From NCBI GenBank assembly GCA_037042915.1, contig CM073199.1:1798001-1862000 (forward strand): a DNA stretch of 64,000 nt. Direction: 5' to 3'. The notes beneath the pieces were generated by a model. It had not been told where the DNA came from. It searched no databases and saw only the letters and a list, made by a program, of their open reading frames with translations. The translations under genes were made by a program, and so were the position numbers. The stretch is from Auricularia sp. M13 (taxonomy: Eukaryota; Basidiomycota; Agaricomycetes; Auriculariales; Auriculariaceae). Shown one piece after another: positions 2,897 through 62,606 of the stretch (the first letter of the stretch is position 1; each line of letters starts with the position of its first letter).

Positions 2897-3583
2897 CTAC
2901 GCGCGGTCCTTGCGCGCAGCCATGCCCTTGGCCTTGGCGACCTTTTTGGCGTCCCGTGCGTTTTGAGACTGCCGACGCTTCCTTCGAAGCTTCGCCTCTC
3001 GGTCTTTCGCCTTGCGGGAGGCTTGCCAATGCCGGAGATCGAGCACGACCGTCAGGCTCTGTACAGTAGGGAGGCCACAATTAGAAAGCTGCTCAAGAGC
3101 CCGAATGATGATACTTGCTCACCGACTCGGCGGCCTGCCGCTCCATCCGGCGCATTTTCGAAATCTCGAGTTTCCGTTTCATCCGACGCATGCGCCGCTC
3201 GCGCCTGAGTCGGGCCTCCTGGATCTCGTCCTAAAGGCGGCGTCAGCACCCTGCCATGGAGAGAAAATACACAGCGCTAGTTCACTCACGTCCGATACCG
3301 GCGACTGTTCGGCGGCGATGTCGGTGAATACGTGCCAGCGATTGGCTCTCGGGACGCGCTGCTTAGGTCAATCAGCTGGCTACTCAATAAAACCAGATGC
3401 AGAGCACGTACCGGATAACCTTCCGCCATGTGATGCGCAGCAGCGGCGAGAGTGAGGAGCGGGTCAACAGCTGGACGACGCTGTTAGTTTCTGAAGCTCT
3501 TCTCGAGGCTGCGGGGTGAGTGATTACTGACCTCTCGCTGGCTGCGTGGCGGAGGCGGGGGTTGTGAAGTCAATGGACTGCAT
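2897..3583 (-). CDS. small basic protein, gene A of a three-member family
   Basis: Five exons on the minus strand: 3532-3583, 3412-3470, 3290-3361, 3123-3230 and 2897-3058, giving 150 aa. The first intron has a CTAAC branch point before its acceptor. The N-terminal half is unremarkable. The C-terminal half is packed with Arg and Lys (RRERRMRRMKRK, then KVAKAKGMAARKDRA at the end), predicted helical and nuclear-localisation-like. No known domain was found. Genes B (8048-8642) and C (61945-62606) share the phase-1 first intron and similar exon sizes. Nuclear or nucleic-acid binding is an inference from charge alone. Confidence 0.7.
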
Positions 3584-3831
3584 TTTTCTGAGGGTGGAGG
3601 ATGCAGAGCAGAGACTGAGTGAGGAAACTTCCGGTCCCGGTCAACCAGCCGCACGCGTACGCGACGGGCTTACCGGGACGCGTCGTCCCTCTCGATGGCA
3701 CCAAGCATACGCTCCAGGAAATGCGACACTGCGAGCTCGATAATGCCAGAAGAACAGGACGGTAAGATCGCAAGGTCGGTGCGAGATGGACAGTCGGCAC
3801 ACGCCCTAGTGCGCGCTCGTCGCGTTCGTAG

Positions 3832-3863
3832 GACGCGTCAAAGCGCGTCGAAGCGCGTCAAAC
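3832..3863 (-). promoter_or_regulatory. GCGCGTC cluster upstream of gene A
   Basis: Three closely spaced copies of a CGCGTC(A/G)AA motif lie about 250 nt upstream of the gene A start. The first contains ACGCGT, the binding site of the fungal cell-cycle factor MBF. The same cluster sits at a similar distance from genes B and C. Confidence 0.5.
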
Positions 3864-5372
3864 ACAGGCCATCGAGTCGGGTCGACATGGTAGGCTTCAT
3901 GCCTGGCGAGGAAGCGTACGATCCTCTGGCCGAGAGGTCGGGCACGATGTGGTGGTCGACAATGGGTTAGACCGTGCCAGCACGCCCAGGCCGCCTGTGC
4001 ATAACGACGTCGCGCGCGCATCCTTTAAGAGCTCTGTTGGCGGGTTGTGGTTATGACCCCGGCTTTCTCGCAACCACGCTACGCAGACTTGCCTTGCTCG
4101 CGTGCTGTCCCGATGGCGATCTTTGCAGTGCCAGCTTCCGTACACATTGAGCGCGCGAAATCCATCGTCAACGCAAGTCAGCCGCTGTATCCAGGGACCG
4201 CGGGCCTTCACGCACGACTCGGACGCGACTGGGGTGTGCTAGGACAGCTTGCGTGAGCCTGCATTCTGGGTGGCTTAAATGGTCACGTACTCGAGCCTGT
4301 TGGATGGCCCACAACCTTTATTCAACGGGCCACCTATCTACCACACATGCCACACGCCTACATCGACACGACTCCCGGGCAACGTACCGACGTATCGTCT
4401 TCAATCGCGATTGCATACGCGCCGATGTGCAATTCCAGGACCTGCGCACAAGGCAGCGGCGGACCTGCCGGCAGCACAAGACCCAAGTATCTTCCCACGA
4501 TATCGGGAAGCGTATGCCATTGTCAGCCGATAGGACAAGTCCTGGTCTTCAGGCGTCCGACGACGGAGAACGACACGACATGACCACGTAGCGCAGTTTA
4601 TCCTAGCCAGCAGCTCGAGTAACGGAGAATTGCATGTGGTCTGCGCAGCAACGATGTCGAAGCCAGGTCGAGATTCGCCCCATCTGCTCGCTCGCTTCGC
4701 GCACGAGTCTACAGGCGCATCCGTGAATACCTTCTTGGGAGGTCGATACGGACAAGAGCACGGCTACTGATCAGCGAGCGGGCGACGTGGCCAAGTAATA
4801 ACAGCTCGGAGCTCCACGACGCGGCCTGACGATATCCCAAATCTGCGTGGATGGTCGACGAAGCCAGGATGAGCTACCTATGTCCAACCGTAGCAGGACA
4901 GCATCTCCTGGCAGACCGACCCAATTTCATACGGCGAGCAGCTTCAGAGAAGCCAAATAATGACCAGTGAGGTAATCGGCAGGAAGTCAGCAAGAAATTA
5001 GATTGTCGACCGAGGACATCGGGTGGTGGTCGCAGCAGTGGTCGGCGGTCCCAGAAGCACAGCTCGTCGTCCATGAATCTGCAGTTAAAGCGTGCCTGAG
5101 CTAGGTCACATAAGGTGCACTGGGGTCTCGAGAGGAACACAACGCTCTTCACGCGGGACGGCAAGGAGGTTGCGCCACGGGTTACGCCACGGTTCGTGGA
5201 CTTGTTTAGAGTTTACTTCCAGTCTTCGGATCTGACCCCGAAAGGTTCCCACGGAAAATGTTGCTATACATTGTAATACAAGCACGAATGCGTCAAGATA
5301 AATAAATAAGTTATCACCACCAATTCGCGGATCTGACTGCACAGGGGCTAGGATGTATCCGCGCATTGTCTC

Positions 5373-6681
5373 TTACTGTTCGCCAGACGGCGGGGTCACC
5401 CACACCTGGGCCATACTGGTCAGCGAGCACTCGGTGAGCACGACGGGGCTGTCTGTCGCCGTGATGCAGCGCCCGTCACTTGCGACGGCGATGCGGTTGT
5501 TGATGGCTGACTTGAATTGCTGCTCGGCCGAGCCGTCGCACTCCGCGAGCAGCACGGCGTCGTCGACTGCCGCCCAGCAGAAATCACCGACCTTCATCGC
5601 CTTGGTGGAACGATCGTACGCAGGCGACTGAGTCACATCCGTTTCGTCGCAGTTGAGCGTGACGACCGCCGCGCCAGCCTCCTGCGCCGTCGCGCCAATG
5701 CACATGTCTGGGTCCAGGTTGGACTCAAGCGCGTGCGGCGGCGGTGTGGGCAGCTTCTTCGGCGAGTACCACCTCTGGAAACTCGATTCCGTCACGCACT
5801 TCCGAAGCGCAACTGGCCAGACCCCCTGAGACGCGTCGCCGGGCACGAGGCACAGGCCAGACTCCACAGACGCGATGTGGTTCTCCTGGGCGGACTTGAA
5901 CTTCTGACTGGCGGCGCTGGAGTCGCACGTGCTGAGGGTGACCGGGTTGTTGGTCCCGTCTACGCATAGAGTGCCATTGAAGACGGTGATCGTCTGCGCG
6001 TCGTGATCGTAATGGAACCACTGCGCCGGGCTGGTGGTGTGGTCGCAGTCGGCCACGACGACAGCCGCACCCTCAGTCTCGGATGCCGCAGTCAGGCACT
6101 TCCATGGCATATCCTGCGACACAAACCAGGCACCGGTCGAGGTGGGCGGTGCCGGGGCGGGGGTGGGGGCGGCGTCGGTTGTCCCTGCAAGACGCGTCAA
6201 CCAGGGTGAACAGCGCCCGTGCTCGATCCCACTCACCTCGGAAGAATTTCTGGTCCGCGCTGTCGTCCACGCAGTCCTGTCCCACGATCGCGGTGCCCGT
6301 GCCGACGTCACCGCCGAGCGCGAAGCATGCCTGGCGCAACTCATGCCTGATCTGCATCTGCTCCTCGCGAATGTCGAAGCGCTGGTTGGCATCGTTCTCG
6401 TCGCATGCCTTGAGCGTGAACGGGTCGCCCGGCTTGAAGTCGTCCTTCAGGCTAACGCACATGTTCGAGAACACGCTGAGGAGGGCGGTCTCGGTCGAGT
6501 GGGTGAACGCCTGGTGCGCCCCGCCTGTGCACGCCCCAAGGACGAGAGGGGCACCTTCGACCATCGAGCCGTACTGCGACTGCACACAGTAGTACAAAGC
6601 CGCGTTGGGGCGGATGGTGTTCTGCGCGAGCGCGAGCGCGGGCAGTATGAGAGCCGAAGCCAGAAAAGTCGGCGACGGCAT
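5373..6681 (-). CDS. secreted ricin-B-like (beta-trefoil) repeat protein
   Basis: Two exons (6237-6681 and 5373-6184) encode 418 aa. Residues 1-19 form a signal peptide ending ALALAQ. The rest consists of repeated ~45-residue units with paired cysteines and Q-x-F/Q-x-W endings (NQRFD, DQKFF, QKFKS, FQRWY, EQQFK, AQVWV), the signature of ricin-B/beta-trefoil carbohydrate-binding folds. Two trefoils seem to be joined by a Pro/Thr-rich linker that starts at the splice site. The likely role is a secreted lectin. No catalytic domain is fused. A TATA box lies about 100 nt upstream. The family call rests on repeat pattern and disulfide spacing, not on an alignment. Confidence 0.8.
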
Positions 6682-6776
6682 GGCGATAACTGGTATGAGA
6701 GAATACAAAGAGAAGAAGTGAATCGCAAAAGAGGAAGTGAGAAATGTGGGGAACATTAGAGACGAGCAAAAGGCTA

Positions 6777-6784
6777 GCTTTATA
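6777..6784 (-). promoter_or_regulatory. TATA box of the lectin gene
   Basis: TATAAAGC on the minus strand, about 100 nt upstream of the lectin start codon at 6681. Confidence 0.45.
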
Positions 6785-7828
6785 CCCTGTTGCCAGCGCA
6801 AAGGTATCAATATGATGGCATTAGAAGAGCAGCTCGCGGGCCCGGGCGTTCAGGAAGATACGAAGAGACGCTAAATGGACGATATGTGGTCACGGAGACA
6901 GCAACGAAGTTTAGGGGCTTCAACACCGCGCCGTTTTACATTGGGAGAAGATGCTCGTATACTCACGGTCATTCGGTACGTTCTCAGGCTGAGGTATCGA
7001 CGCGAGCCGCACAGGGTCCCGTCGTCCGAAGGGACGTCCACTGACTCTTGACTCGAGCCTGTCAATTTCCGCTCACCACGTATCGCATCATTGAGAAGGC
7101 AATATGCACCCGGTCCCGATGGCAGCTTCGCCTGGTATCTCGGACTTGCAGATCTTGCACAGGCCAGTACGTCACGTGAGACGTTCGCTGGCTGCACAGC
7201 CGTAGTACATCACGTGAGACTCAGAGACGCAATACCTACAGGATGACACAGTTCTTAAAAGCAAGAGAAGCAGGACAAGAACTCAATTGATAGCTTGTGG
7301 CGGCCCTGGTCACATCGGGGTCGTCGGCATATCATTCTCATTGATCAGCAGGGGTTTTGCAATATTATTTTCAAATCTACCAGATATGATACGTCAGTCG
7401 CACTGATTGACTCCGTCACGACGGCTTGGAGTCGGACAGATGCGCCTGCGCGTCGAAGCCATACAAGCTGCATCGACACCAATAAGGCAATTGTGAGTGA
7501 GACGGCTGCAGTCCCGCACTATTGATGAGCAGATTGGGCCCTTCTCTTACTTCAGAACTGTGTCACCTGCAGCTTATCGCCCCGCGTCCTGCCTGTCAGT
7601 CACGACAGCTCCCGTGAGCCTGTCAATACAGCATGTCACTTTCCCTGGTTAATTATTATCGAACGTCAAAGTCTGCGAAGGAGACTAGTAAATTGTATAG
7701 GGGCACAGTCGGAGTAATGAGCTTCCATTAGATAAACCGAATCCAGACAATACGCTGAAGTCCTTACTCAGGCCTCAGTTATGGATCATGTCAAGATGCC
7801 GCACGATCGCAACGCAAAGAAACGAAAC
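6785..7828. other. intergenic region with paired E-boxes
   Basis: No supported gene. The stretch is AT-richer than its neighbours and contains a pair of CACGTG sites at 7173 and 7211. It probably holds the lectin promoter distal elements and the 3' flank of gene B. Confidence 0.5.
7168..7219. promoter_or_regulatory. twin CACGTG E-boxes
   Basis: Two near-identical 16-mers (GTACNTCACGTGAGAC) contain the palindrome CACGTG at 7173-7178 and 7211-7216. CACGTG is the core site of bHLH factors such as Cbf1 and Pho4. Which gene they would serve is unknown. Confidence 0.4.
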
Positions 7829-8047
7829 TCGAAAGTTAAATATGTTGCAAGAGAGAGGAAACTGTACCGGCAACAGATCATATCAACGGTACAGATAGAC
7901 AGCTATACACAGCGTTAACAGAGCAAAATACAGAGCTACATACAGCGACGTAGGTGTCCGAGAATCCGAGTATGCCATTCCCAATGCAATGTTCTATGCG
8001 AATGAACGATCATCCCTTCTACACGCGCGATGCTTGCGCTGAGCGGT

Positions 8048-8642
8048 CTAGTTCGCGTTGCGAACCTTGCGAGCATAGCCGGCCTTTGCGGCAGCACGGC
8101 GCGTCGCCCTCTTCTTCTCTGCAGACGCCTTCGCCTTGGCGATGCGCTTCGCCTGCTTCGCGGCCTGTGCGAGGGGAGTGGCCGAGTCAGAGCTCTACTC
8201 GAGGGCGCGAGTAGAAGTTCCTGCTCACCTCCTTCTTATTTCTTAGACGGGCCTTCAAAATCTCCAGCTTACGAACGCGCCTAATGTGCCGGCGTAAGCG
8301 CCTGAGCCGCTTCTGTTCTGCTGCCTCGCACTACAGGCGCAGTCAGCACACTCAGTGGAATGAAGAGACGGTTTGCACTTGCTTCATGCGCGGCCACCAC
8401 GAGTGCCGGGATGCTCCATGGATCGGACGCAGCCTGCTGGATATATTAGCTGGCGAGGTGTTCGGACTATGTGAGGAAACGTACCGCGTGGCGTGTATCG
8501 ACCGCCGTCACGAGAAGGTGCAGACCACCATCTGGGCGAGCCGTCAGTTAATGATGCTCATGTCCCGCTGACGGGTGGATTATTAATGACCATCAGTGGG
8601 CCGCGGGCGGGGAAGGTATGGAGTCTGGGTGGAAGATGCCAT
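8048..8642 (-). CDS. small basic protein, gene B of a three-member family
   Basis: Five exons: 8591-8642, 8485-8531, 8383-8433, 8229-8330 and 8048-8164, giving 122 aa. Exon 1 (52 nt) has the size seen in gene A. Exons 2 (47 nt) and 3 (51 nt) have exactly the sizes seen in gene C. The tail is rich in Lys, Arg and Ala (RRLRRHIRRVRK, then AEKKRATRRAAAKAG). The third intron would use a GC donor (GCAAGT), rare but known in fungi, because only that junction keeps the frame. The gene sits in the second copy of the duplicated segment. Its function is unknown. Confidence 0.62.
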
Positions 8643-8947
8643 TGTTCAAGTCTCTTCGTTGTGGTTGAAAAAGGTGGCCGGGGGGGGAGGGGGGAGGGGG
8701 GTCTTCTGGACAGAGCTGAGAAGAGGCTGAGTGAGGAAATTTCCAGTCCCGGCCAACCGGCCGGACGCGTGCGAGACGGACCTACCTGGACGCCGCGTCC
8801 CTCTGGCCGCCGCCACATCCACATCCCTGCGAGAACGACGCTTGTAACTCGACAACGCCTGCATAATATCGCTATCAAGCCGCAAGACCGGGAATTCGAC
8901 GAGCTGGCAGCGCATACGCTCCAACCCGCCGCGCGTCGCGTCCGCAG

Positions 8948-8979
8948 GACGCGTCAAAGCGTGTAAAAGCGCGTCAAAC
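8948..8979 (-). promoter_or_regulatory. GCGCGTC cluster upstream of gene B
   Basis: Same arrangement as at 3832-3863, about 305 nt upstream of the gene B start. The outer two motifs are intact and the middle one has changed to GCGTGTA. Confidence 0.5.
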
Positions 8980-10595
8980 CCAAGCCATATATCCGGAGCG
9001 AAGATCGCACGCTTCATGCCTGGCGAGGACACGTACGATCAGCAGGCCGAAACGTCGGGCACGATGTGGTTATCGACGGCGCACCCAACCGTAGCAGCAC
9101 GCCAGGGCCGCCGAAGAACGAAGTTGCGCTCGCATCTCTTTCAGAGCTTCCTGGGTGGTTTGTGGTTATGACCACGTTTTTCTCGCGACCACACACCGCA
9201 GACTCGCCTGGGTATCGCGCAGTCACTGGGCGGTCTACAATCGCACCTAGGCAGCGCGAACGCAGCGCTGGCACAGGCCGAAGGCTCAGCATCGTCCGTA
9301 CACCCGCGGGGCCCTTGGCAGCCGACATGGCGCGACTGAGGCGCGCTAGGACAGCTTGCGTGAGCCTGTATTATGAGCGTTTATATGGTCACGTACTCGA
9401 GCCTGCTGGATGGCCCACAACGTTTATTCAACGGGCGACCTATCTACCACACTTGCCACACGCCTAAACCGACACCACCGACCGACTATCCTCATGGTTC
9501 ACGATTGCATGCGCGTCGACGGGTGATCGTAGGACCTGCGTGGAATTCACAGTGGACGAACAGCCTGTACTGGAGCCGGACGCGCCAAGAGCCAAGTCGC
9601 TTCCCAGTACATCGCGAGACATGCCATTGCAGCGCTTCGGACGAGTCCTGGAGCTTCATGAGTCTGACGATGGAGAACTACACGACACGGGTTCGTAGCG
9701 CAGTCTAGGCCCAGCAACACGAGCACAATTGCATTTGGTGTGCGCAGCGACGATGTCGAGCCCAGGTCGAGGCTGCACCTTCTGAGCACGCTGGTCCAGT
9801 AATTGGGCCCCTTTGCCCGCTCGCTTCGCAGTCCGCGCACACGAGGATACAGTCGGCCATTCGTCGCATATCTCCTGGGGTTATCCGTTTCGACAGGGAC
9901 GAGAGCACAGCTACTACTCAGCCTGCGGGCGGCATGGTCAAGTGCCCAACAGCCCAGATTTCCACTTCGCAGCCTGACGATACCCAAAATTCGGGCGTGG
10001 ATGGGCGAAGAAGACTTCCATATCCCAGACAGGCGAGAACACAAAATGACTTCCGCCATAGCATCCCGCTTGACCGGTCACGAGTATAAACAGAGCCTAC
10101 TAGGAGGACAGACGATCCGAACCCGTCTGACGTACGACCCATTTCCATCCGGCGAGCAAACTTTGGGAAACCAGATAACGACCGGCGACGAGTTGGTCAA
10201 GAAGTTAGCAAGAAATCGAGCTGTGGGCCCAGGACACTGGGTGGTTGTTGCAGCGGTTGTCGACGGTCCCAGGAGCACTCGTTCGCTCGTCGTCCACGGC
10301 GAAATCGTGCCCGAGCTGGGTCACAAGTTACACTGGGGCCGCCAGAGGAATAGACCGCCGTTCAAGATGGAAGGGACGGAGGTCGTGTCTACAACACGGT
10401 GCGTGGCTGGTTCGTGGACTGGTTTAGAGTTTGCATCCAGTCCTGATTTGCCTCCGAAAGGTTCCCACGACAAATTAGGCCACGAGTATCCTAATATTTG
10501 CATTCAACTGGGCAACGTAGTTGCAAAAGAAATCGGCACATTATGGTCTAGAATGACAAGTTCTTTATGTGGTACAAGCATGATGGCGTCAACTA

Positions 10596-11156
10596 TTACA
10601 CGTCGATAACGGGTTGTCCAAAGTCCACCTCGAAATGTACAGTCAGTTCATCTTCCCGATCACCTTCCTCAGCGACAGTCGGTCTAGCGACATAGACGCC
10701 GACTTCGACCACAGCATCGGGCTGTTTGGCCAAGAACCAGGTGATCTCGCGCAATGGAACTTTTGAATTATCCTCTGCGATGTAGAAGAGCCATAGATTC
10801 CCCTTGACAGTCGCAAGCTCGAGCGTGACCTTTCCATCCTTCACGAGGCCAGGAGCAAGGCTCAAGTCCGCCGCCGTGTCGCAGGTGACACAGGCGACGT
10901 ACGGTACGCCGTCGAAGAGCTCGATTCCACATTTGATCCAGAAGTTGCCCGACGGCGAAAGGATAACGAGTCCACCCTGGTCGTACTGACGCGTCCAGCT
11001 CGCGTGAATGGTCGCGCGCAGTTGTTTAAACGACGTCAACGGGACCTGGATAGTCTTTCGTGGCGCGTTGTCGCGGTTGACCGGCGGATTGCCAGGCTTG
11101 CGCCAGAGGTCCGAGGGGGCGATAGTGGAAAGCGTGAAGGTGTCTGAGCCGGGCAT
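10596..11156 (-). CDS. DUF1349-family protein (concanavalin-A-like fold), copy 1
   Basis: A single exon of 186 aa starting at MPGSDTFTLS. It is clearly paralogous to 18386-18940: both share WTRQYDQGG, KCGIE, PGxVKDGK and LREITWFLxKQPD. DUF1349 proteins resemble yeast Ree1 (regulation of enolase) and adopt a lectin-like beta sandwich. Their biochemical activity is not established. No signal peptide is seen. A TATA-like GTTATAAGGC lies about 40 nt upstream of the ATG. The C-terminus (FGQPVIDV) differs from the paralog. Confidence 0.85.
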   Translation of the reverse strand: MPGSDTFTLSTIAPSDLWRKPGNPPVNRDNAPRKTIQVPLTSFKQLRATIHASWTRQYDQGGLVILSPSGNFWIKCGIELFDGVPYVACVTCDTAADLSLAPGLVKDGKVTLELATVKGNLWLFYIAEDNSKVPLREITWFLAKQPDAVVEVGVYVARPTVAEEGDREDELTVHFEVDFGQPVIDV

Positions 11157-11190
11157 GGTCGCGTGTGAGGAAGGCAACGGCAGGCAATCC

Positions 11191-11200
11191 GCCTTATAAC
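11191..11200 (-). promoter_or_regulatory. TATA-like box of DUF1349 copy 1
   Basis: GTTATAAGGC on the minus strand, 35-45 nt upstream of the start codon. Confidence 0.4.
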
Positions 11201-11609
11201 TTGCACGAGTCGCACGACGTCGGACCTAGGAGACAAACGTGTTCACAGCCGCCAGTGACACGTTCGAACGCTGCGAGGTGACGCGTACGATTGTATGACA
11301 GATCGAGACGCTTAGATCAACGTGACGAGAGCCAAGTTGATGACTGAACCAGGACTGAACGTTGAACGTTGAACGTGGATATACGTGTCAAGTGGGATGT
11401 GGTTCGAGAGTGCAACGGAAGCGAATCTCGTTGATCCTTTCCGCCGCGGAATTCGACGCGAATTTTACACGACGCTCCTCGCAATGCTGGATGCATTACG
11501 TTGGTAATAACGCCAGGAAATATTTACACTCGACCAGAATGCATCACAATCTATAGCATTCTAAAACCGGTTACAAGATTAGACCACAGAACAACTCAGC
11601 CCCGAAGAA
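11201..11609. other. intergenic
   Basis: Promoter side of the DUF1349 gene and 3' flank of the WSC gene. A short tandem of GAACGTTGAACGT occurs near 11357-11373. No gene is seen. Confidence 0.4.
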
Positions 11610-18139: not shown

Positions 18140-18385
18140 TTCGGGGAAGACAAGGTGAGCAGCGGACCCTAAAATCCTTGCTTTCCTGTTATATTCACGA
18201 GCGTGACACCCATGGCATTTGCAGGGCTATTCTCTCGACTATTCATACTGTTAACTCGGGCTATTCAGGATATTCCTGTTGCAGTATCCTTCCAGGCACC
18301 GTGATTGGATCCTTGGCGCTCCGGGCCGTCCACAACTGGAAAGCCAAAACCGGCCCGTGCTCTCTTGCTTCAGCGTCCCGCTACG

Positions 18386-18940
18386 ATGCCTAGCTCTGAA
18401 CCGTTCACGCTCTCCGCCACCGCGCCCGCCGACTTCTGGCGCAAGCCAGGCAGCACGCCCATCGATCTGCACAACGCCGCGCGCAACACCGAGCCCGTCG
18501 CTCTGGCGGAGCTCAAGCGCGTGCGCGTGACGGTGCACGCGGACTGGACACGGCAGTACGACCAGGGCGGGCTCATCATCGTCGCGCCGTCCGGCGGGTC
18601 CGCGTTCTGGGTGAAGTGCGGCATCGAGTTCTACAATGGCGTGCCGTGCGTGTCGTGCGTCGCGACCGACGCCTGGTCCGACTGGAGCGTCGTGCCCGGG
18701 ATTGTGAAGGACGGCAAGATCACCATCGAGCTTGCACCCGCAGAGGGTAGTCTGTGGCTCTATCTCGTTGGGGAAGACGGGACGCGCACGGCGCTTCGCG
18801 AGATTACCTGGTTCTTGACCAAACAGCCGGACGTTGTCGCTGACGTTGGGGTCTATGCTGCGCGGCCAACTGCTGCTAAGGATGGCAGTACCACGGACGA
18901 GCTGGCTGTGCACTTTGAGAACTTTGTGCTAGAACATTGA
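18386..18940 (+). CDS. DUF1349-family protein, copy 2
   Basis: A single exon of 184 aa starting MPSSEPFTLSATAPADF. It is a paralog of 10596-11156, with near-identical motifs WTRQYDQGG, KCGIEFYNGVPCVSCV, GIVKDGKITIELAP and ALREITWFLTKQPD. It lies on the opposite strand from copy 1, about 7 kb away. The coding sequence is more GC-rich than copy 1. As for copy 1, the fold is lectin-like and the activity unknown. Confidence 0.87.
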   Translation: MPSSEPFTLSATAPADFWRKPGSTPIDLHNAARNTEPVALAELKRVRVTVHADWTRQYDQGGLIIVAPSGGSAFWVKCGIEFYNGVPCVSCVATDAWSDWSVVPGIVKDGKITIELAPAEGSLWLYLVGEDGTRTALREITWFLTKQPDVVADVGVYAARPTAAKDGSTTDELAVHFENFVLEH

Positions 18941-38851: not shown

Positions 38852-40188
38852 GACGACTTGGCGGTCAAGAACAAAGGACCAGTGAGTTGACGGCGCTTGC
38901 CGTCACGACACGGGTGGGCTTTCGTGCGGAGGAAGCTGAGTGAGTATAAGCAGCTTCCTGCGTCCGCCAGCACAGTGTTTCGGATGAAAGAGATAGAGAT
39001 CGAAAAAAACAGCACCCAGTGAACACTGAGAGGAGAGAAATTATGAAATGTGACATTCAAGTGGCGGCCCGACACGGCATGCTCTAGTAAAAGGCGAGAA
39101 CGTGATGCGATATGCTGAGCCGCCAGCCACAGCTTTTAGGTAGATAGATCAGAAGAGCAATCATTTGTTGGTGTTTTGAGTGCGATCGACGGCTGTTGCA
39201 ATCACAACGCAGAACCCAGGAGTTCTCTGCTTTCCTAGTCAAAACGGTTGGGTGCGACACTCATTATTCATACTAATATGTGAGGTCAGCTCATGGTTCA
39301 GAACGGCCACTACATGCCAAATGGCAGAGAGTCGCTTCCAGGCGCAAAAGTCGGCATAGCACTGACCACGCGCGACGAAGGGCGGCTCATGAGAAAGAGA
39401 AGAATGAGTGAAACAGGGCACGAGTGATCTTGGATGCGTTGGAGCTGGTGGATACAGCTGACTCCGATGTATTTGCTTGGCCACGGTAGGAGATCACAGG
39501 TATTCCAGCATATGAACGTTCGTTCATGGAGGGAGCAGACGACATGAGTCGAAGGCGTGCGCACGAACCAATGGCAATATGAAGTTATGTCTGGATCCAT
39601 GTTGGGAGGGACGAGGTGGCAAAGGGGGGTGAAACGGATGGACTGCCTCCAGTGCACAGTACAGTAACGCAATACGGGGTGACAGCTGTAGGAACGTTGA
39701 AAGTTGCTAGAAATGGTGAACCGGAGGTCGTCCGGCGGGTCGAACGTTCTTGAACACGAATGTGACAAACTCGACACTGAAAGCCGAAACCTGCGAAAAA
39801 AAAGCCGCGAGGTCAAGCAAGCCACAAGTAACTTCCGCGTGGCGCGGCTATCAGCCCCAAGGTGCCATGTCTGAAAGCTATACAGCGACCCCGCCCGCAC
39901 CGCCAGAAAAGGGGTCGCTGTATAAGACGTCGCTTTGAGGTAGACTAATATGTCTGGAGCTTGAAGGCGTGATGTTGGAAAGCAGAGGTCAAGTGCCTGG
40001 AGGGAATTGTTCATCCACGAACATCCTAAGGGATAGCAGCGTTCTAGATAGAACATTTCAGTGCCAGCGGTAGGCCGTGTGGGATAAGCCAGGATATTGT
40101 GAACATTTTGCACCACAGACGAACCGGAAAGAAAGGGCGACGCGTTTCGCGCTCCGCCCTCCCGCGCTTTCCGTCACGTTGCCCGGAC
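38852..40188. other. gene-poor region with a 14-bp perfect hairpin
   Basis: A long minus-strand frame (39310-40116) is open, but its product is rich in Ser, Arg, Cys and Trp with no domain, and I do not call it. The region also contains the inverted repeat at 39879-39924. Confidence 0.4.
39879..39924. other. perfect inverted repeat, 14-bp arms
   Basis: TATACAGCGACCCC (39879-39892) and GGGGTCGCTGTATA (39911-39924) are separated by 18 nt. It could be the end structure of a small palindromic element, or a hairpin in RNA. Confidence 0.5.
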
Positions 40189-53732: not shown

Positions 53733-54142
53733 AACGAAACGAAACGACACGCTCTGCACTTCGACTTCTTAGCTTGGTTCCCTATTGGGATTTGCGTCGC
53801 TGGTTCTTCGCAGGATATTCTGTCGAACATTTTTCACTGTATCTGCATATCAATTGCCCGCAACTGTACAAACGCAACTGTAGCTTATTCTTCGTGTGCA
53901 AAATCATTGTGGTCCCAGGAGCTGCTGGCTCATCATGCTCATGGTGATTCATATTTGCAAGACGTCGACGCCCCTGGGTCTCATTTCCTTACTGCTGGTG
54001 CGATGCTATTAACATTTTCTTGCCGGGATCGCTGAGTGTAAGCGTGTACACAAGGACACAGGTCAACGTACGTGCATTGATCACGCGTCAGTAAAAGGAA
54101 CTAGGTATCGCATTCCAGAGGTCCATGTCGAGTCCGAGGGCA
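53733..54142. other. intergenic, convergent 3' flanks
   Basis: Between the kinase and the carboxylesterase. Nothing recognised. Confidence 0.35.
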
Positions 54143-56058
54143 TTAAATGAGCAACTCATCCGCGACGGAGTAAAGCACGTCCATGCCCTTCTTGCGGAAA
54201 ATATCGCGCTCAACCCAGCTCTTAGTGACGTTGCCCTCGAACACGAGCGAATGCTGGAGCGGGCCATAACCAGGCCACGCGGGGAGGCCCTTCACATTCG
54301 GGTTCCCATTGACGATGAAGTTAATCCAGCGGCGCGGCATCTCCTCTGCGAGCTCGAAGTAGCGCTTGGGCGCGCCGGTGAACGGGTTGACGTCGTAGCC
54401 CCTTCCAGCAGTGTTGCCGAACACATAGGGGATCTCGTCGAAGTGCGCGACGCCGAGATACGCGGGAGTTGTGAGCGGCTTGGTGTCGAAGCGGTAGCAG
54501 TAGATGGGCAGGCCGTGCGCGGCCCACGTCTGGCACGTCCAGCGGCGCGGCCCGATCTGCGTGCGGTCCGAGTGGTAAGTGTCCACGCGCTTGTACTGGT
54601 CGTACAGCGGCGGCGGCGCGGGCAGCGGGATGTCGTACGACGCGGGGATCTGGTGCTTGGGGTCGTTAGGGTAGACCTTGGCGAGCTTCTCGATTGTCTT
54701 GTTCGAGAGGTAGACCTCGACGTTGTCCGCTAAGTAATATGGGTTAGATCAGTGTTGAAATGTCAAACTGTGCAAAGCTCACGGGTCCGGACGAAGTTCT
54801 TAAAGGCCTGTTCGTCGTTGATGCCCAGGTTGAGCAGGTATGCGCCTGCCTCGTCTGAGGTGGTACCGGTCAGAAGCGGAACCTTCGCGAAGCGGCCCTT
54901 CTTCAGACGACGGCTGGGGAACTCGTGCATCACGACGTTGTCGATATCGGGCATGGCCCAGACCTCTTGCTGGCCAAGGTCTTCGACAACCTTTTGAATC
55001 GCGGCGAGGGGAAGGGCGCGCAGGCACTCGAGGTGGTCACTCGCGGTGCTACAGCCCGTAGCGTGGAGGTAGCGTTTATACTGCGGCTCGAAGTACTTCA
55101 AGCTGCGGTCTATGTCGAGGTTCAGCACAGCACTATGCGAGGGCAGCTAAACAGACAAGTGCCGTCCAGGAACGGTCCACCGCTCTGGCAGATGGCAGAC
55201 CTGAACAGGCCTTCCGAATTGCCATTCCAGCCGAGCATATGCTGACCAACGGAGAACCCGCCGCTGGGTTTCGTTTGCACAATGAGCTCCACTCCAAGAC
55301 GGTGGGAAAGGCGTTCACTCACGCGCTCTCTCCCCAGATGGTGACCTTGCGGGGGTCGCCGCCGAACGAAGCAATGTTCTCCTGAATCCAGCGCAGCGCG
55401 AGGCGCTGGTCCTTCATGCCGAGGTTGGCGACACCCTGGTCGACGACCTCCTGGCTCGCGAGGAAGCCAAGCTGCGCGAGGCGGTAGTTGAAGCTGACGG
55501 CGATCAAGGGAGTGTCGTACTTCTGCGAGATGCGCACGAAGTCGGAGAAATTGTAGTGCGGCCAGGACGAGCTGCCCGTGAAGTAACCGCCTCTGAAGAC
55601 AAGATGAATGCGCTGGCAATTGAAGAAGGGAATTATACGCGTACCCATATATCCAGACTGCGACAGGCAATTTTGCATTGCGAGGGAGGCCAGCGGGACG
55701 AACGACGTTGATGGTCAAACAGTCCTCAGACTGCTCTTCTGGACCAGGCAGCTGCAATAGACAATGAGCTCAACTGGACGCATTTTGGAGCACAACGCAC
55801 TCCGTATCCGACGCAAGAGAGCGAATAAGCCTTCGCGCCGCGCGTACCGTTCCAGCGCGCGTTCAGGCTGGCAGGATCGCGATAGCGCAGCGGTCCAATT
55901 GGCGGCGCCGCGTACGGCATGCCCAGGAAGTAGTCCTGGTTGAACGACGCGTCGTGCACGCCCTCGTATGTCCCATTGCGCACCGTGACGTGCGGCGCAG
56001 CGTGAATGAGCGCCGGGAGGACCGTGACGGCGAGCACCGACAGCGCCCGCAACAACAT
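54143..56058 (-). CDS. secreted type-B carboxylesterase/lipase
   Basis: A multi-exon gene of roughly 550 aa. A signal peptide (MLLRALSVLAVTVLPALIHA) is followed by FLGMPYAAPPIGPLRYRDP and SEDCLTINVVRP. An oxyanion-hole block GGGYFTG is formed across an intron and is followed by AVSFNYRLAQLGFLAS. The nucleophile elbow GESAGG is also formed across an intron (exon ends GES-A, next starts GG). TSDEAGAYLL carries the catalytic acid and GVAHFDEIPYVFG the catalytic His. All triad residues are present. The enzyme belongs to the alpha/beta-hydrolase family of fungal cholinesterase-like lipases and esterases; the substrate is unknown. Confidence 0.92.
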
Positions 56059-56109
56059 ATAAAAAACGAGGGTGAAAGACTGGGGGTCTGGATGCCGTAG
56101 CCTCCACCG

Positions 56110-56126
56110 GGTTTCTTATATGATTT
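56110..56126 (-). promoter_or_regulatory. TATA-like box of the carboxylesterase gene
   Basis: ATCATATAAGAAACC on the minus strand, about 60 nt upstream of the start codon at 56058. Confidence 0.4.
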
Positions 56127-56914
56127 TCACCCAGGGGGCCACGGGGACGTCGTTCAGCACGGCTGGACAGATCCGCTTGGCAGTTGGCCGTCGCTGGCTC
56201 GCCGCAGCGCTAGCAATCGTTGGCGCGAGGACGAGTGTCGCTGGAGCCATACGCGCTCGGTGTGCCAGGCTGGTGCAGCGAAGAAACGCATTCGAGCCGG
56301 GTTGTCCATGAAAGGGACTGGCGAAGTCAGCGCACGAAAACGAGCTTGATGAGCGCACGTGGGCTACAATCCATGCCTGATTGAGGACGGTGCTGTGCAC
56401 TGGTTATGTTATGTTGACCTGACGATCTCCGAGGCCATGAGGAGCCTTGCATGAGCAGAGGTATGCGCGAATTGCTTGAAGTTTTTCCCGCTGGGCTAGT
56501 TCGCATGGAGCCGGTCTTGGCAAAGTGTACGGCGAGCTATTTAGCAAGAGAGCACCGTCGACGAAGCTGCGTATACTCTAGCAACGAGCCAAGACAGATC
56601 TCCGAGGGAGCGGGACAACATCGGTCCAACCTCGGTGAAGAGATTCTCGGCCAGCTCCGCGGGCGACTCACGGGAGTTCAACATTCAACGTTCAATACGT
56701 TCAGTTTCCACAAGTCATCTGTTGAAGACGCATCTAAAGTAAGTAGTAGCAATACAACATGTTGAATATCCATCCACTCAGCCTCGACAGAGGAACATCA
56801 GAGTCAAGAAATTGATATAATAATCCACCCTTCACCACCCCGCCCCGCTCTACTATACCAACAAAAACACACCGCAAGATATTCTCGAACTGTCAACTTG
56901 AGGGGCAGGCGGCC
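56127..56914. other. intergenic
   Basis: Upstream region of the esterase and 3' flank of the permease. It contains a short GTTCAACATTCAACGTTCAA repeat near 56680. No gene recognised. Confidence 0.35.
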
Positions 56915-59033
56915 TCATGAGCTGGCAGCCTTCAAGGTCGGCTTCTCGTCTGCGTCCTCGACGATGCTGGGTTCCTTGCTTGCGTGCGTGCTCGCGATGT
57001 CCGACACGGGGCCCTTATAGTGGTGTCGCGCCTGGATAATATACCACAAGATCGAGAGCAGGACGACGCCCGCCGTGATCGGCTGCACAACGCGCGGATA
57101 AGTACATGACTGCGCGAGGGGTAGGGCGCGCGGAACGTACGGCAGCATAGTTCATGTTGGCCGCCGTGACGGGCAGCACGGTCGGCAGCGCGAAGATGAT
57201 GCACACAAAGAGCGTCCAGCAGATGCAGATGATATTCGCGCCCCAGCCGATGATGCCGTCGCCCATGTAGAACGGCCCCGGGGTGAAGTGCACGTCGGGG
57301 TGGTTGCGGTACCATCTCCGCCTACAAATACAAAGTTCAGTTCAATGTTCAACACTCAATAGGTAGCCGGGCGACTCACAGGAAAATAGGATAAATATAA
57401 CTAAGGTCGAGCGCCATAGCGGTGAGCGCGAAGATGGCGTTGGCCGCGATGGGCGACGCGAGGTCGAGCAGGCCGGGGAGGATGGAGAGGAAGGTGGTGA
57501 GCGCGACAGCGCGGAGCGGCGTCTGGGTGATGCTCGAGACGTGCGCGAAGTACTTGCCGTCCGGCAGGCCACGGTCGCGCGAGAACGCGAAGATCGTGCG
57601 AGAGCACGCCTGCAGCGCCGTCTGCACCACGAAGAACGCCGTCGCGACCACCGGCACCCACAGCACCAATGCACCGGCGGTGCCAATGCGCTGGTGCATG
57701 ATCTCCATGAACGCGAGCCCGGACCGGCCTGGGAGCTGGTCAAGCGGCGGGGAGCAGAGGACGAGGACAATGTTGAGCAGCCAGCCGATGAGACCCGTGC
57801 CCAGGACGGCGATGAAGATTGCAGATGGCGCGGCATACGCAGCGCGCTTCACTTCCTCGGAAATGTGGGCTACATGGCAGTCAGAAGGTGAATATGAGCG
57901 ATGGGGGAGTTTGGCATGCCTGTCGCGTCGTAGTCCGTCATTGTCCATTGGACGGAAAGCAGGCCGAAGAGGAAGGCGATTCCCGTGTTCCACTCTGTCT
58001 GGTTCACGATGCCTTCAGACCCAAAGACGTATCCAGCAGAGTTCTACGCCGATATGAGCCTGGGTGAGCAAGAGCAACCCTTTGCGTACCATGTTCTCCC
58101 TGCCCGTGCATGCCAGCAGGACGATGATGATCAGCACAGTCGCACCCACTGCAAGTCGCCATTGATCAGTATGAATCCAGCTCCAAACTTTCAGACGGTG
58201 TCCGCACCGTTGACAAAGACGAAGGCAGACGTGATGCGCGCCAGCATGCGCGTCGCGAGCGAGTTCTATGACACCGAACACATGAGTGAACAACATGAAT
58301 GCCCGTCAGCAATCACAGCGTACCAGAATGCCATGGACGACCAGCAGGGCCACGAACAGGCCGACGACCTTGCCCTGCGTGATGTTGAAGTCGCCGCCCT
58401 TGCCCACGGAGACGGCGGCCCAGATCATGTTGCTCAGGCCGAACTCGGTGGACGAGATTCCAGCAATCTGGCCGAGGATGTTGAGCCAGCCGATGAGGTA
58501 TCCCGTCTGCGAATCGCCGTCATGTCAACGTCAATGTCAGGTGTAAGCACGCAGAAGCACGTACGGTGGCGCGTTGGCTGGGCGGGCACAGTTGTGCGCT
58601 TGCCGTGTACAGGCCGCCACCTAGTAGACGCGCGCCGCTGGCTGTCAGCGGGTGCGGATGACGCGCGGGGTCAAAGCAAAGAGACGCACTGGTGGGGAAG
58701 GCGCTGACAATCTCAGCTATAGAGGCGCCGAGCGTGAAGCACATGCTGGCTCCCAGGATCCAGCACCAGGTCGCCGATGCCGGGCCTCCCAGCGTCAAGG
58801 GCGTGTTGAACGTCGTCGCTATGCTGCTGCACATGCCCATGATGCTGAACGCGAAGCTAATCGTCGCCAGATTCGTGCTGCGTACGGAGTGCCCATCAAC
58901 GCGTGCAGCAGCCAAGGCACGGCGGTAAGACGTACAATTCGCGCTTGAAGGACGGCTTGTAGAGGCCGGCGATGACATCCTCCTCGTCGAGCGAGCTGGC
59001 GGTGACAGACTCGGTGTCGCGTGCGGGCGCCAT
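56915..59033 (-). CDS. amino acid/GABA-type permease (APC superfamily)
   Basis: A multi-exon gene starting MAPARDTESVTASSLDEED. The conserved early block FAFSIMGMCSSIATTFNTPL is followed by GGPASATWCWILGA and GASIAEIVSAFPTSGGLY across two splices. Then come GWLNILGQIAGISSTEFGL, VALLVVHGI, the helix with FVVQTALQACSRTIFAFSRD, and RGLPDGKYFAHVSSITQTP. About 12 transmembrane helices are expected. The order and motifs match the Uga4/Bat-type fungal permeases that import GABA, choline or other amino-acid-like solutes at the plasma membrane. The C-terminal tail (EDADEKPTLKAASS) is cytosolic. Confidence 0.9.
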
Positions 59034-60889
59034 TTTTCGTGGTCAAAGGCAAAGGAACAGGAAGGAAAGGAAGGAGAGAGAGGCGACCAAAGGAGGATCA
59101 AACAGCGTGAAATCTTGGGTGGCCTTATCAGCGGCAGCCCCCAGCCTTGGTATCTTTGATCAACCCGCCCAGCCGTTGGCACGCCCACGGCCGCTATATC
59201 CTGGTTCAGCGGCGCTACCAGAGTCCCTAGGGCCGATTACGCCGGTTTTTCGAGCGCGATTGCACGCACGTGCGTCGGTGCTGGGCGGCCTAACACCGTG
59301 TCGCGCCCATGTCGCGGGAGCACAAGCACATGGTCGCTGGACGGCCATCACGCGGCCGATATTTCATCTTTTGACGAGCCAGAGCCTTTGTCGGCGCGCG
59401 GAGCAGCATCCACGGACAGAACATGGCGCTGACGAGACAGCGCGCAAGAAGAGAATGAGGTCAACAAACAGTCCCGCGCCGGTACTTACTTAGGTGTGCA
59501 GAATCACCTGATTACCCATGAAACTGGCGCATCGCGACGAGTCGCAATTATGATTCACGCGCTTGAAGACGAGTCTGCATTCAGTGGGGGTTGTCCCAAG
59601 TTGAGAGGCTGAAGCAGAGAAGCGTTGCGAAGGCTTTGAAGTTCCGGAATCCCCAAATGGCCGCGAATTGATTCTATGAAGTCAGGTTAATGATGAACAG
59701 CTCCTGTGGTCGATATCCTCAAGCTGACCACGCAAGTAATCCCGATTTCACAACGACCGAAGGACGATGAGGAGGAGCTCATTGTGTAATATCGCCCTAT
59801 TTTCCGAAGTGGATACTCGAATAGGCAGACCATGGCGGCCGCAGGCGATATGGAACGAGAGAGGAGGTTCAGTTGTCATCCAGAACCATTACTGTATCCG
59901 AGATTGGGGTATTTCGACGATTGTTCGGTGCCGCGAGGTCTAGTTCGAGAGTTCAAGTGGCCTGTCTAGACTGCTCCGCGGAACAATTCCGCGAAATCAG
60001 CATGGATGCAAACTCTAAAGCGGGAAGGATGTCCACAAACCACTGCGCCACTTCCCATGCCCGTCGAGTTCTGCATCGCCCCTGAAACTTGTGTGCTGCC
60101 AGCGCGACACTCTTGCATCACTGAAATCGTTGAATCGCCCAAATCAACCGCTTTACTGCGTCCATTTCTTGCTGACGCGTTCATGGGCAATGAACGTGAC
60201 CACTGCCGCTACCACCCACTACTGGCTTCACAACGTGCTTTCTGGCTTTGGGCAGATCGCTTGTGGCACTGGACCGTAGCTTGTCAACAGCAAGCACTTC
60301 GTCTGCCTGCCTACTCACGAAAATATGATCCTGTCTGGCTTGCGGTCGTCCTGAACGCCAAACGGTGCTTCTACTTGCGGCAAGCAGAAGTCCTCGTCGA
60401 ACATCATCGATGTCTACTTCTGTGCGTCGCTGGACTACGAGTTGGGCTTTGGGGCGGTTGTCGTCGGGCTTCATGGTCTGGCGCTGGGTCGCTGAGTCAT
60501 CGCCGAAATCAGACGTCGTGTGATGGGTTGCGAAAGGTTTGGTCGACGCTTGCCTGCTCGCGAGGCTGGCCGGGAACCTTGCGCTGACGCTGGGTGGGAC
60601 CGCGCATGGCCAGAAACGTGTGTTCGCGGTGCGTACGGTGCTGATGTTGCATTGGTCGTGCTACTGGGATCGGGAACGATACGAGGTCAAGGGCTCGCCC
60701 TTGAAGAATCTATTCTGGGCGAGACAAAGCGACCGCGCAGACGAGTCTGTTGCTGGTAAGGGGTCCCTGCTTACTTCGCCTGGGACTGGCGCGCGAACAT
60801 ATGCTCTGCCTGTCGTGCCCGCCGCCTGCATGCTTTGGGACGCGCCTGTCTGGTCGTGAAGGCCCTAGTCGAATGTTTCCACGCGCTGG
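59034..60889. other. gene-poor region
   Basis: A 193-codon plus frame (60006-60587) overlaps a minus frame and has no recognisable product. No element identified. Confidence 0.35.
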
Positions 60890-61944
60890 GCTGGTTTATT
60901 CAGACCACCAGGGTGGTCCTTGAGTTGTGGTAGGCCCGCGCAGCAGGACGACCTCGCGAGATTCCCGGGATGCATGTTGGCGTATGCGAAGTGTCGTAGA
61001 TACGAGGCCCGTTGAATAGACATCGTTCGCCGCCTAATAGGCTCGAGTGCGTGACCCATATTAATCCGTCCCAGAATGCAAGCTTATGCGAAGTCGTCCA
61101 GTGTCCCGCGTCCCACCGCGCAGTCGAATGGTTGACAGAAGGCATCTGCGATGGTTGTAACCACAACCACGGCGGGCGATGGCTCTTAAGCAGCGCGAGC
61201 CGGAGCCGCGTCGTGTCGAGAAGTGGCGGTCGGCCCCGTGACGAACAGCTGGCTAAGCGCTGCTTGCCCTGTGTGCGCGTGCGCCGCTGGTGTGCATTGC
61301 TGGCAACAGGCCATCCTGTGTCGATGTGGGCATTGCAAGCGTCCGCAGCCGGTCATGCTGTCGCCGATGCTGGTCGTTCAGCAGGGCGAACGCCAGGTAG
61401 GTTCGCATCGTATCGTGTCGAGACTCAGGCCTGACCACGGGGTTCCTGCAGTTGCTCCTCATCAGTCGTGAAGACCGTTCGCAAGAGTCGTTGCGGAGTC
61501 GATGTTGCGTATAGCCCCGGCCGACGATAACCACACGCCCGACGCCCCGGCGCGACGCTTCGACGCGTCTTCGCCCAGGATAACGTGCTTCAGCTGCCCG
61601 CCGAGCCTTACGCCTGGATTCGACGCGCTTTGACGCGCTTAGGATGGTCATGCATGCGACTCGCGCACAGTGCAGCGTGTGCTCACCGTCTCGCCCATCC
61701 ATTGCCAACCTTGGTCCCCAGCCGCAGTGAGCTCAAGGAATGGGCCGGCTTCGCGACGCCCGTTTTTGTTGTGGCGCATGCATGCCAGGGAGCTCAGCGG
61801 GACGAGGCGTTTTGGACTGCACGGCACGTTCGGCAGCTGGCCCGGGTATTTCAGGTTCAGATATTTCGCTCTCAGCATCTCGACACTCTTTGCCAGAGAC
61901 TTTCCCCCCCTACACACAACATCCTTTCCCACAACCCACACACG
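60890..61944 (-). repeat. upstream block of the basic-protein module, third (inverted) copy
   Basis: Read on the minus strand, 61170-60900 matches 4255-4390 and 9360-9480 (shared ACTCGAGCCT, TTATTCAACGGG-like and CACGCC blocks). The GTTGTGGTTA block near 61150 matches 4040 and 9155. Together with gene C this forms a third copy of the module in inverted orientation, about 50 kb from the other two. Confidence 0.6.
61552..61640 (+). promoter_or_regulatory. GCGCGTC/GACGCGC cluster upstream of gene C
   Basis: CGACGCGTC at 61560 and two adjacent GACGCGCTT copies at 61622-61640, about 305 nt before the gene C start. This is the same motif set as upstream of genes A and B, seen from the gene's strand. 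Confidence 0.5.
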
Positions 61945-62606
61945 ATGTCCCCCACCAGCACCAAAATTTCGGTCGCGAACGGCGCTGCTCGAGGTAAGAA
62001 CTATGTCCACCACTCAACACCCGCGTTAGGAATTGATGTGTCTTGCCAGACACCTCCGGTCTCCACATTCTCGCCTCAGTGGCGGGCCAGCAACGGGTAC
62101 GTGCCCCCTCGAAGCGTCTGGCCTTACTCCTGGCAGGCTGCTGACAATCCATAGCATTTGCCCGTAGCCCCAGCGCCGCTTGTCGGCCTCGACGCCCTCC
62201 CGTTTGTAAGTGTAGACCATCCTTTCTCTTGCTCGAGTACTGATTGCACCTGCAGCCCACGCCCAAGCCCGGACCGCTTACGGTTCGAATATCCGCATCA
62301 CGGCTGCCTCGACGCAGCCAATTCGTGCGCAATGGCCGTTTCGCGCTCCCCGAGCATAACCCGCTCACGCTAATCAAATTCCAATTGGAAGAGATTGAGC
62401 GTGGGCTGGAGCGGTTGAAACGCGCCAGAGCCGCGCGCAGGGCGGCCGCGAGGGCTGCGCGAAAGGCAGCCGAGAAGGCTGCAGAAGAGGCCCGCAAGGC
62501 CGAGCGCGGTTCGCGCAAGCGCAAGAGCAAGGGCGGCAAGGCCCCCAAGACGAAGAGCGAGGGCGTCAAGGCCCGCAAGACGAAGGGAAAGGGCTCGCGT
62601 TCGTAG
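61945..62606 (+). CDS. small basic protein, gene C of a three-member family
   Basis: Four exons (61945-61993, 62050-62096, 62155-62205 and 62256-62606) encode 165 aa starting MSPTSTKISVANGAAR. Exons 2 and 3 (47 and 51 nt) match gene B in length and phase. The last exon corresponds to exons 4 and 5 of genes A and B without the intron. It encodes a helical Arg/Ala/Lys stretch (RLKRARAARRAAARAARKAA) and a Lys/Gly/Ser tail (GSRKRKSKGG, KGKGSRS) resembling linker-histone tails. Family unknown; nucleic-acid binding is inferred from charge. Confidence 0.7.

What the first reader, a model, noticed from the sequence alone, without database searches (positions are those of the whole stretch)
2897..62606. 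An unrecognised three-gene family of small basic proteins with conserved exon phases
Genes A (2897-3583), B (8048-8642) and C (61945-62606) can all be spliced into proteins of 120-165 aa with Lys/Arg/Ala-rich tails. The first intron is phase 1 in all three. Exon 1 is 52, 52 and 49 nt. Exons 2 and 3 are exactly 47 and 51 nt in B and C. This cannot be chance and shows a real gene family despite weak protein similarity. No known domain is visible. The tails suggest nucleic-acid or chromatin binding, but that is inference.
Basis: partly seen in the sequence, partly recalled or inferred. Interest (0 to 1): 0.75.

Follow-up and report, generated by a model that had tools for sequence, protein, structure and literature searches.

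The report
Local orphan family of basic proteins
Three small fungal genes that look almost unrelated at the protein level are true duplicates of one another, shown by their shared introns and control regions; they encode unknown, very basic, fast-changing proteins that may act in the nucleus, an interesting but modest find.

Summary
A (2897-3583 -), B (8048-8642 -) and C (61945-62606 +) splice as stated: 150, 122 and 165 aa, first intron phase 1, exon 1 of 52/52/49 nt, exons 2 and 3 of 47 and 51 nt in B and C. "Cannot be chance" from exon lengths alone is too strong: 1,110 of 30,876 random model pairs share such lengths. The family is real for better reasons. A and B lie in a duplicated unit of about 2.6 kb at 69-71% DNA identity. 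C shares three collinear flanking blocks with both. Five of ten intron pairs tested align well above shuffles. A C-like gene (D) and an A-like fragment lie about 20 kb outside the window. Coding is supported by C/D (omega 0.31; codon-position mismatches 25/15/5 of 55). Unusually, exons diverge faster than introns in both pairs. No Pfam match reached its cut-off. Most likely these are fast-evolving basic proteins, probably nuclear, under one shared promoter design. Function is inference; relatives in other fungi could not be searched.

The parts
2897..3583 (-). Gene A, 5 exons (3532-3583, 3412-3470, 3290-3361, 3123-3230, 2897-3058), 150 aa, pI 11.45
   Evidence: model; introns 1, 3 and 4 homologous to B; composition
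8048..8642 (-). Gene B, 5 exons (8591-8642, 8485-8531, 8383-8433, 8229-8330, 8048-8164), 122 aa, pI 11.6; intron 3 is GC-AG
   Evidence: model; intron 3 homologous to C intron 3 (0 of 2000 shuffles)
61945..62606 (+). Gene C, 4 exons (61945-61993, 62050-62096, 62155-62205, 62256-62606), 165 aa, pI 11.86; no counterpart of A/B intron 4 in the model
   Evidence: model; coding supported by comparison with gene D
2726..5259 (-). Duplicated unit 1 (gene A, 3' region and about 1.7 kb upstream)
   Evidence: blastn of window to itself: 3603-4863 vs 8715-10013 at 69%, 4917-5259 vs 10135-10475 at 71%, 2726-2915 vs 7840-8039 at 69%
7840..10475 (-). Duplicated unit 2 (gene B, 3' region and about 1.8 kb upstream)
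   Evidence: as above
4242..4363 (-). Conserved upstream block of A (about -660 to -780)
   Evidence: matches C block at 76% over 126 columns; no RNA structure signal
9349..9464 (-). Conserved upstream block of B (about -710 to -820)
   Evidence: matches C block 60979-61099 at 73.6%
60974..61099 (+). Conserved upstream block of C (about -850 to -970)
   Evidence: E 1.5e-19 vs A, 1.1e-15 vs B in pairwise comparison
3834..3861 (-). GACGCGCTTT-type direct repeats with 10-nt spacing, promoter of A (-276, -266, -256)
8950..8977 (-). Same repeats in promoter of B (-333 and -313; the unit between them altered)
61620..61637 (+). Same repeats in promoter of C (-323, -313)
62674..62738 (+). Conserved block 3' of C, matching 2839-2775 of A (and, from 62667-62728, 7959-7899 of B)
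   Evidence: E 2.3e-5 and 1.7e-4 in pairwise comparison

Best explanation
Shown: A, B and C are paralogues. A and B lie in a head-to-tail segmental duplication that includes promoter and 3' region; C, in the opposite orientation, shares intron and flank blocks with both; a C-like member D and an A-like fragment lie about 20 kb to the left of the window. The three share an upstream design (a conserved block about 0.66-0.97 kb upstream and GACGCGCTTT repeats about 0.26-0.33 kb upstream). Each model encodes a 122-165 aa protein with a variable N-terminal part, which in B, C and D holds a short GLH-like motif, and a Lys/Arg/Ala-rich C-terminal part. Inferred: C is the older split; the proteins are intracellular and nuclear, the basic part binds nucleic acid or chromatin, the variable N-terminal part meets a fast-changing partner, and the common promoter switches the copies on together. 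I take it for an orphan family in local birth-and-death evolution; that it is restricted to one lineage is likewise inferred, since no other fungus could be searched.
For: Models. DNA homology A/B, C with A and B, C with D at 71% over 599 nt. Intron homology: A1-B1, A4-B4, B3-C3 0 of 2000 shuffles, A3-B3 1 of 2000, A2-C2 6 of 2000. Basic halves more alike than composition allows: A/B and C/D 0 of 2000, B/D 2, A/C 17, B/C 30 of 2000 shuffles. Coding under constraint: C/D dN 0.25, dS 0.81 over 114 codons; mismatches at wobble/first/second position 25/15/5 of 55, p=1e-4. In C/D the gap columns are 0 in exons 1 and 2 and 27 in exon 3, against 2, 0 and 7 in the introns. pI and charge; best 19-residue Kyte-Doolittle mean 0.62-0.93, so no transmembrane core. 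No Pfam match over cut-off.
Against: No transcript data and no orthologue. N-terminal similarity is at shuffle level for A/C (636 of 2000), A/B (337) and A/D (164), and modest for B/C (74) and B/D (23); the basic half of A/D is also at shuffle level (185 of 2000). Intron pairs that do not clearly pass: A1-C1 355, A2-B2 100, B2-C2 68, B1-C1 57, A3-C3 30 of 2000 shuffles. C/D exon 4 (first part) has 4 gap columns that shift D's frame. A/B codon-position bias is weak (32/28/44 of 70 codons, p=0.019). An antisense frame through C is also open (ORF 61910-62875) and shows a low ratio with D (0.52 in exon 4 against 0.38 for the sense frame; 0.38 against 0.42 over introns 1-2 with exon 2). NLS-like strings are short and few. 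Nuclear role and binding were not tested.
Confidence: 0.6

Rival explanations
1. Decaying family: the genes were once coding but are now largely unconstrained, and only the cis-regulatory islands and splice-competent introns remain because time has been short.
For: A/B exons (196 of 397 identical) are as diverged as the least conserved flank window (4050-4199, 76 of 142 identical; p=0.43); A versus its fragment A' shows 6 non-synonymous and 1 synonymous change in exons 3-4; truncated A-like fragment nearby.
Against: Open frames survive in A, B and C despite great divergence, although spliced ORFs are easy to find (249 of 400); C/D omega 0.31 and codon-position bias.
Confidence: 0.2
2. Selfish or recognition genes (for example spore-killer-like, or self/non-self factors) under diversifying selection: exons are driven to change while introns and promoters stay.
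For: Exons less conserved than introns in two pairs: C/D 233 of 332 vs 139 of 162 identical, p=1.4e-4; A/B 196 of 397 vs 137 of 222, p=0.003. Clustered multi-exon family with a conserved upstream region, as described for wtf genes (passages of PMC5478261 and PMC6526906). Same contig as the only STE3 pheromone receptor matches returned for this genome, 240-320 kb away.
Against: omega is below 1 where it can be measured (C/D 0.31); wobble sites, not only amino-acid sites, outrun introns (25 of 55 vs 23 of 162 differ), which points to intron constraint; no Met beyond position 1 in B or C, and no transmembrane core.
Confidence: 0.08
3. Non-coding or antisense locus: the conserved parts (upstream blocks, introns, 3' block), or an antisense reading frame, are the functional element, and the spliced ORFs are incidental.
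For: Flanks (1,282 of 1,805) and introns (137 of 222) are better conserved than exons (196 of 397) in A/B, likewise introns in C/D; many random places allow spliced ORFs (249 of 400); an antisense ORF of 321 aa spans C and antisense frames show ratios of 0.38-0.65 in C/D.
Against: The sense frame has the lowest ratio in exon 4 (0.38 against 0.52 antisense) and second codon positions are the most conserved (5 of 55). No RNA structure in the conserved block on either strand in three copies (z -0.51 to 1.40); no Rfam match there. Over the whole C/D region the best antisense frame has a stop in D.
Confidence: 0.07
4. The copies are a non-autonomous mobile element carrying a passenger gene.
For: Dispersed copies in both orientations.
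Against: No convincing terminal inverted repeats at the ends of the A or B unit (best opposite-strand match 20 columns at 75%, E 3.3); clear copies found only in one stretch of about 85 kb, although those searches miss distant copies.
Confidence: 0.05

Closest known systems
wtf gene family of Schizosaccharomyces (passages seen: PMC5478261, PMC6526906)
   Same: Multi-exon (5-6 exons), fast-evolving local duplicates with a conserved upstream region
   Different: [quoted passage not shown] no shared Pfam family found; presumably a different phylum
Linker histone / protamine-like basic chromatin proteins (recalled)
   Same: Lys/Arg/Ala-rich tail, very high pI, small size
   Different: No Pfam match over cut-off, so no recognisable globular domain; fast-evolving locus
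bZIP-type transcription factors (recalled)
   Same: Basic stretch that may form a helix in the C-terminal half
   Different: No Pfam bZIP match; leucine heptads were not tested
Snake venom phospholipase A2 genes with introns more conserved than exons (recalled; two paper searches returned nothing)
   Same: Introns and flanks more conserved than exons between paralogues
   Different: Those are secreted proteins evolving with omega near or above 1 (recalled); here omega is 0.31 in the one measurable pair and nothing suggests secretion

Membership tests
wtf-like poison-antidote meiotic drivers | Several predicted transmembrane segments | tested here: not met
   best 19-residue Kyte-Doolittle mean 0.62-0.93 in A, B, C; feature from PMC5478261
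[quoted passage not shown]
   B and C have Met only at position 1; A has Met 32, near the end of exon 2; feature from PMC6526906
wtf-like poison-antidote meiotic drivers | Biased transmission or spore killing | not testable with these tools
   needs crosses
Linker histone | Winged-helix globular domain (Pfam Linker_histone) | tested here: not met
   not among the matches up to E=1 for A, B, C or D; HMMER filters drop most matches above 0.1
bZIP transcription factors | Pfam bZIP domain | tested here: not met
   not among the matches up to E=1 for A, B, C or D; same limit
Secreted effector or venom-like family | N-terminal signal peptide | tested here: inconclusive
   best 12-mer mean hydropathy in the first 35 residues 1.06-1.57, low for a signal core (recalled); no dedicated predictor was run
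Single gene family A-B-C (this report) | Homologous introns and collinear flanks | tested here: met
   five of ten intron pairs clearly above shuffles
DNA transposon / MITE | Terminal inverted repeats at unit ends | tested here: not met
   ends of A and B units compared

The most novel reading that the evidence does not exclude
A nuclear self-recognition or drive family in a basidiomycete, linked to the pheromone-receptor contig, in which a constant regulatory frame and constant introns carry exons that turn over so fast that paralogues of one gene share almost no N-terminal sequence.
Probability: 0.06. Interest if true: 0.75.

Novelty: new member of a known kind. Interest (0 to 1): 0.33.

Why it matters
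It shows that a gene family nearly invisible to protein comparison can be recovered from introns and promoters, and gives a small system in which introns outlast wobble positions. If the proteins are nuclear and diversifying, it would be an entry to recognition or conflict genes in mushrooms, where few are known (recalled).

Tried and rejected
Pfam for A, B, C: best are TCAD7 15.8 bits against a cut-off of 24 (A) and DNA_primase_lrg 14.8 against 22.4 (C), none for B; rejected as chance on basic or helical stretches. Pfam for D: two matches at 12.4 and 11.8 bits, cut-offs 25.2 and 27. PDB sequences: none up to E=1 for A or C (B was not searched alone); a profile of A-D gave one hit at E=0.034 to a putative splicing protein over profile positions 78-113; rejected as weak. 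Genome contigs and viral contigs with C exon 4: 593 and 251 pattern matches, none confirmed (prokaryotes and viruses, so little expected). Conserved upstream block as RNA: no signal. Hidden coding upstream of A/B (3600-5249): mismatch counts by frame in 11 windows show no consistent period by eye; no test was run. Mobile-element ends: none convincing. Positive selection as the sole reason for fast exons: not supported, omega 0.31 in C/D; A/B exon 4 synonymous sites are saturated (pS 0.77), so omega could not be had there. D as a plain pseudogene: the C-like frame is shifted in exon 4, but of 637 splice models that keep the exon 4 frame, 12 keep exons of 49 and 47 nt, one being 49/47/75/351 nt with an acceptor inside exon 4, so its status is left open. 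Mating-type locus membership: the STE3 matches lie 240 kb or more away on the same contig and the one homeobox match is on another contig; not a member on this evidence. Paper searches for such families or for the intron pattern gave nothing useful; the search for the organism's name was inconclusive (listing only).

Limits: the genome searches are insensitive. The A protein query did not return B, nor the B query A; B's 3' DNA did not return A, and B's promoter DNA did not return C. Copy number is therefore a lower bound. For dN/dS I aligned pieces of C and D exon by exon in the C frame, leaving out the stretch around D's shift, the diverged tail and the codons split by intron 1; the basic half of D was likewise read in the C frame, not in the spliced model. 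The A/B exon count first used rounded fractions and was recounted exactly (196 of 397, not 195).
Full report
Setting. The window is contig 7, 1,798,001-1,862,000, of an unnamed 52,096,326-base genome in 14 contigs; the tool holds no relatives of this genome. I did not identify the species.

Check of the observation. All three spliced models were rebuilt from the sequence and agree with the finding in coordinates, exon sizes and phase. Because short introns are easy to find, I asked how often unrelated places allow the same. From 400 random ATGs in the window, 249 allow some ORF with at least four exons and 300 nt. Among the 30,876 pairs of these, 1,110 share the exon 2 and exon 3 lengths with exon 1 of the same phase and within 3 nt; 97 do so under the stricter rule that B and C meet. 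The length argument is suggestive, not decisive.

What makes the family certain is DNA. A self-comparison of the window shows 2726-5259 and 7840-10475 as two copies at 69-71% identity, with the match lost close to the ends of the gene bodies. C shares with both A and B, in the same order and orientation, a block of about 126 nt upstream (60974-61099; E 1.5e-19 and 1.1e-15), a promoter stretch (61525-61840 with A at 59%, 61520-61682 with B at 65%; E 2e-11 and 3e-12) and a 3' block (E 2e-5 and 2e-4); these are pairwise E-values with relaxed scoring. Of ten intron pairs tested against 2000 shuffles, A1-B1, A4-B4 and B3-C3 were never reached, A3-B3 was reached once and A2-C2 6 times. The other five were reached 30 (A3-C3), 57 (B1-C1), 68 (B2-C2), 100 (A2-B2) and 355 (A1-C1) times.

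Further copies. At C7:1,777,307-1,777,903 (minus) lies D, a C-like gene (71% over 599 nt), and beside it at 1,776,528-1,776,926 an A-like fragment (91% to A from intron 2 to the start of exon 5), joined to an A-type promoter at 1,776,259-1,776,528 (77%). D's ATG is at 1,777,880. DNA similarity between another local duplicate, E2, and E1 ends at 1,777,913, and the E protein match at 1,777,885, just upstream of that ATG. D keeps exons of 49 and 47 nt; the exon 4 frame of C is shifted in D, but a splice model (49/47/75/351 nt) stays open. Outside the gene, C and D do not align usefully: 5' UTR 19 of 45, 3' flank 58 of 193 identical.

Coding or not. Between C and D, exon 4 shows mismatches at wobble, first and second codon position of 25, 15 and 5 of 55 (p=1e-4). 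Over 114 codons dN is 0.25 and dS 0.81. This is what protein-coding DNA under constraint looks like. For A/B exons 4-5 the bias is weak: 32, 28 and 44 of 70 codons, p=0.019. Against this, an antisense frame through C is open for 321 aa and mirrors part of the signal: pN/pS 0.52 in exon 4 (sense 0.38), 0.38 over introns 1-2 with exon 2 (sense frame of exon 2 0.42), 0.65 over the whole region with one stop in D. I take that as the mirror of the sense signal, but it is not excluded as a gene.

Odd tempo. Introns are better conserved than exons in both pairs: C/D 139 of 162 versus 233 of 332 identical sites (p=1.4e-4; the exon 4 tail, 83 of 153, was left out of that count) and A/B 137 of 222 versus 196 of 397 (p=0.003). 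In C/D even wobble sites of exon 4 (25 of 55 differ) outrun introns (23 of 162 differ; p=7e-6). Since omega is low there, I read this mainly as constraint on introns plus fast exons, not as proof of positive selection. The A/B flanks (1,282 of 1,805 identical) are better conserved than exons (p=5e-16), but unevenly: 4050-4199 has 76 of 142, no different from the exons (p=0.43). The A/A' pair has 7 differences in 180 exon 3-4 sites and 3 in 123 sites of introns 3 and 4, but 9 of 50 in intron 2 and 9 of 39 at the start of exon 5, where alignment may fail. One other duplicate pair in the window, the DUF1349 genes, shows the opposite: its match lies inside the two ORFs.

Anatomy. pI is 11.45, 11.60 and 11.86 and net charge +19, +22 and +27; the N-terminal halves of A and B are near neutral (pI 6.25 and 6.82), while that of C is basic (12.0). 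B, C and D share a short GLHLL / GLHIL / RLHDF motif in exon 2; A does not clearly have it. The A-B-C-D alignment has 13 invariant columns of 200. No transmembrane-like stretch is present in A, B or C. The promoters of A and C carry GACGCGCTT-type repeats at 10-nt spacing, at -276/-266/-256 in A and -323/-313 in C; B has units at -333 and -313, the one between them altered. With up to two mismatches, an 18-nt form of this motif matches 17 times in the genome against 11 for its reversed control; 5 of the 17 matches are in these three promoters.

Extent. Genome searches with A, B, C and D proteins, promoter and gene DNA found clear members only between 1.776 and 1.861 Mb of contig 7; the other rows, on other contigs, had E-values of 0.24-0.36. 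These searches did not find B with A, or A with B, so more distant members elsewhere cannot be excluded.

Mechanism. The best-supported reading is an orphan family in birth-and-death evolution whose products are small basic intracellular proteins, probably nuclear and nucleic-acid-binding, expressed together through a common promoter. Family, shared introns and duplication are shown; coding of C/D is well supported; coding of A and B is likely; location, binding, co-expression and restriction to one lineage are inferred. It is not a member of the wtf family, the linker histones or the bZIP factors on the features tested.

Verdict. Observation confirmed, interpretation partly supported, interest modest. 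What stays open is why introns outlast wobble sites in this family.

Noticed in passing
window 39013-39131 (-): U5 spliceosomal RNA gene, Rfam RF00020, 71.2 bits against a gathering score of 40.
   Followed up: no
C7:1786772-1787191 (+) in L006, and C7:1777885-1778172 (-): A second local duplicate pair (E1, E2), 97% identical over 260 bp; E2 breaks off just upstream of gene D. Clear matches only at these two places; no Pfam match for the E1 exon.
   Followed up: partly
C7:1865154-1865281 and 1865813-1865940: 128-bp inverted repeats at 99% identity bounding about 787 bp: looks like a small terminal-inverted-repeat element.
   Followed up: no
C7:1494922-1495901 and 1536717-1537722: The only STE3-type pheromone receptor matches returned for this genome, on the same contig as the family (nearest 240-320 kb away); the one homeobox match is on C3.
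   Followed up: partly
window 10599-11177 (-) and 18305-18940 (+): DUF1349-type paralogues whose DNA match lies inside the two ORFs, a contrast to A/B (Pfam run on the first only).
   Followed up: partly
window 61994-62049 and 62097-62154 (introns 1 and 2 of C): Introns 1 and 2 of C are 89% and 83% identical to those of D, with a 30-nt identical run in intron 2, far above wobble sites; reason unknown.
   Followed up: partly
window 61910-62875 (-): Antisense ORF of 321 aa spanning the whole of gene C; mirrors part of the coding signal with D.
   Followed up: partly
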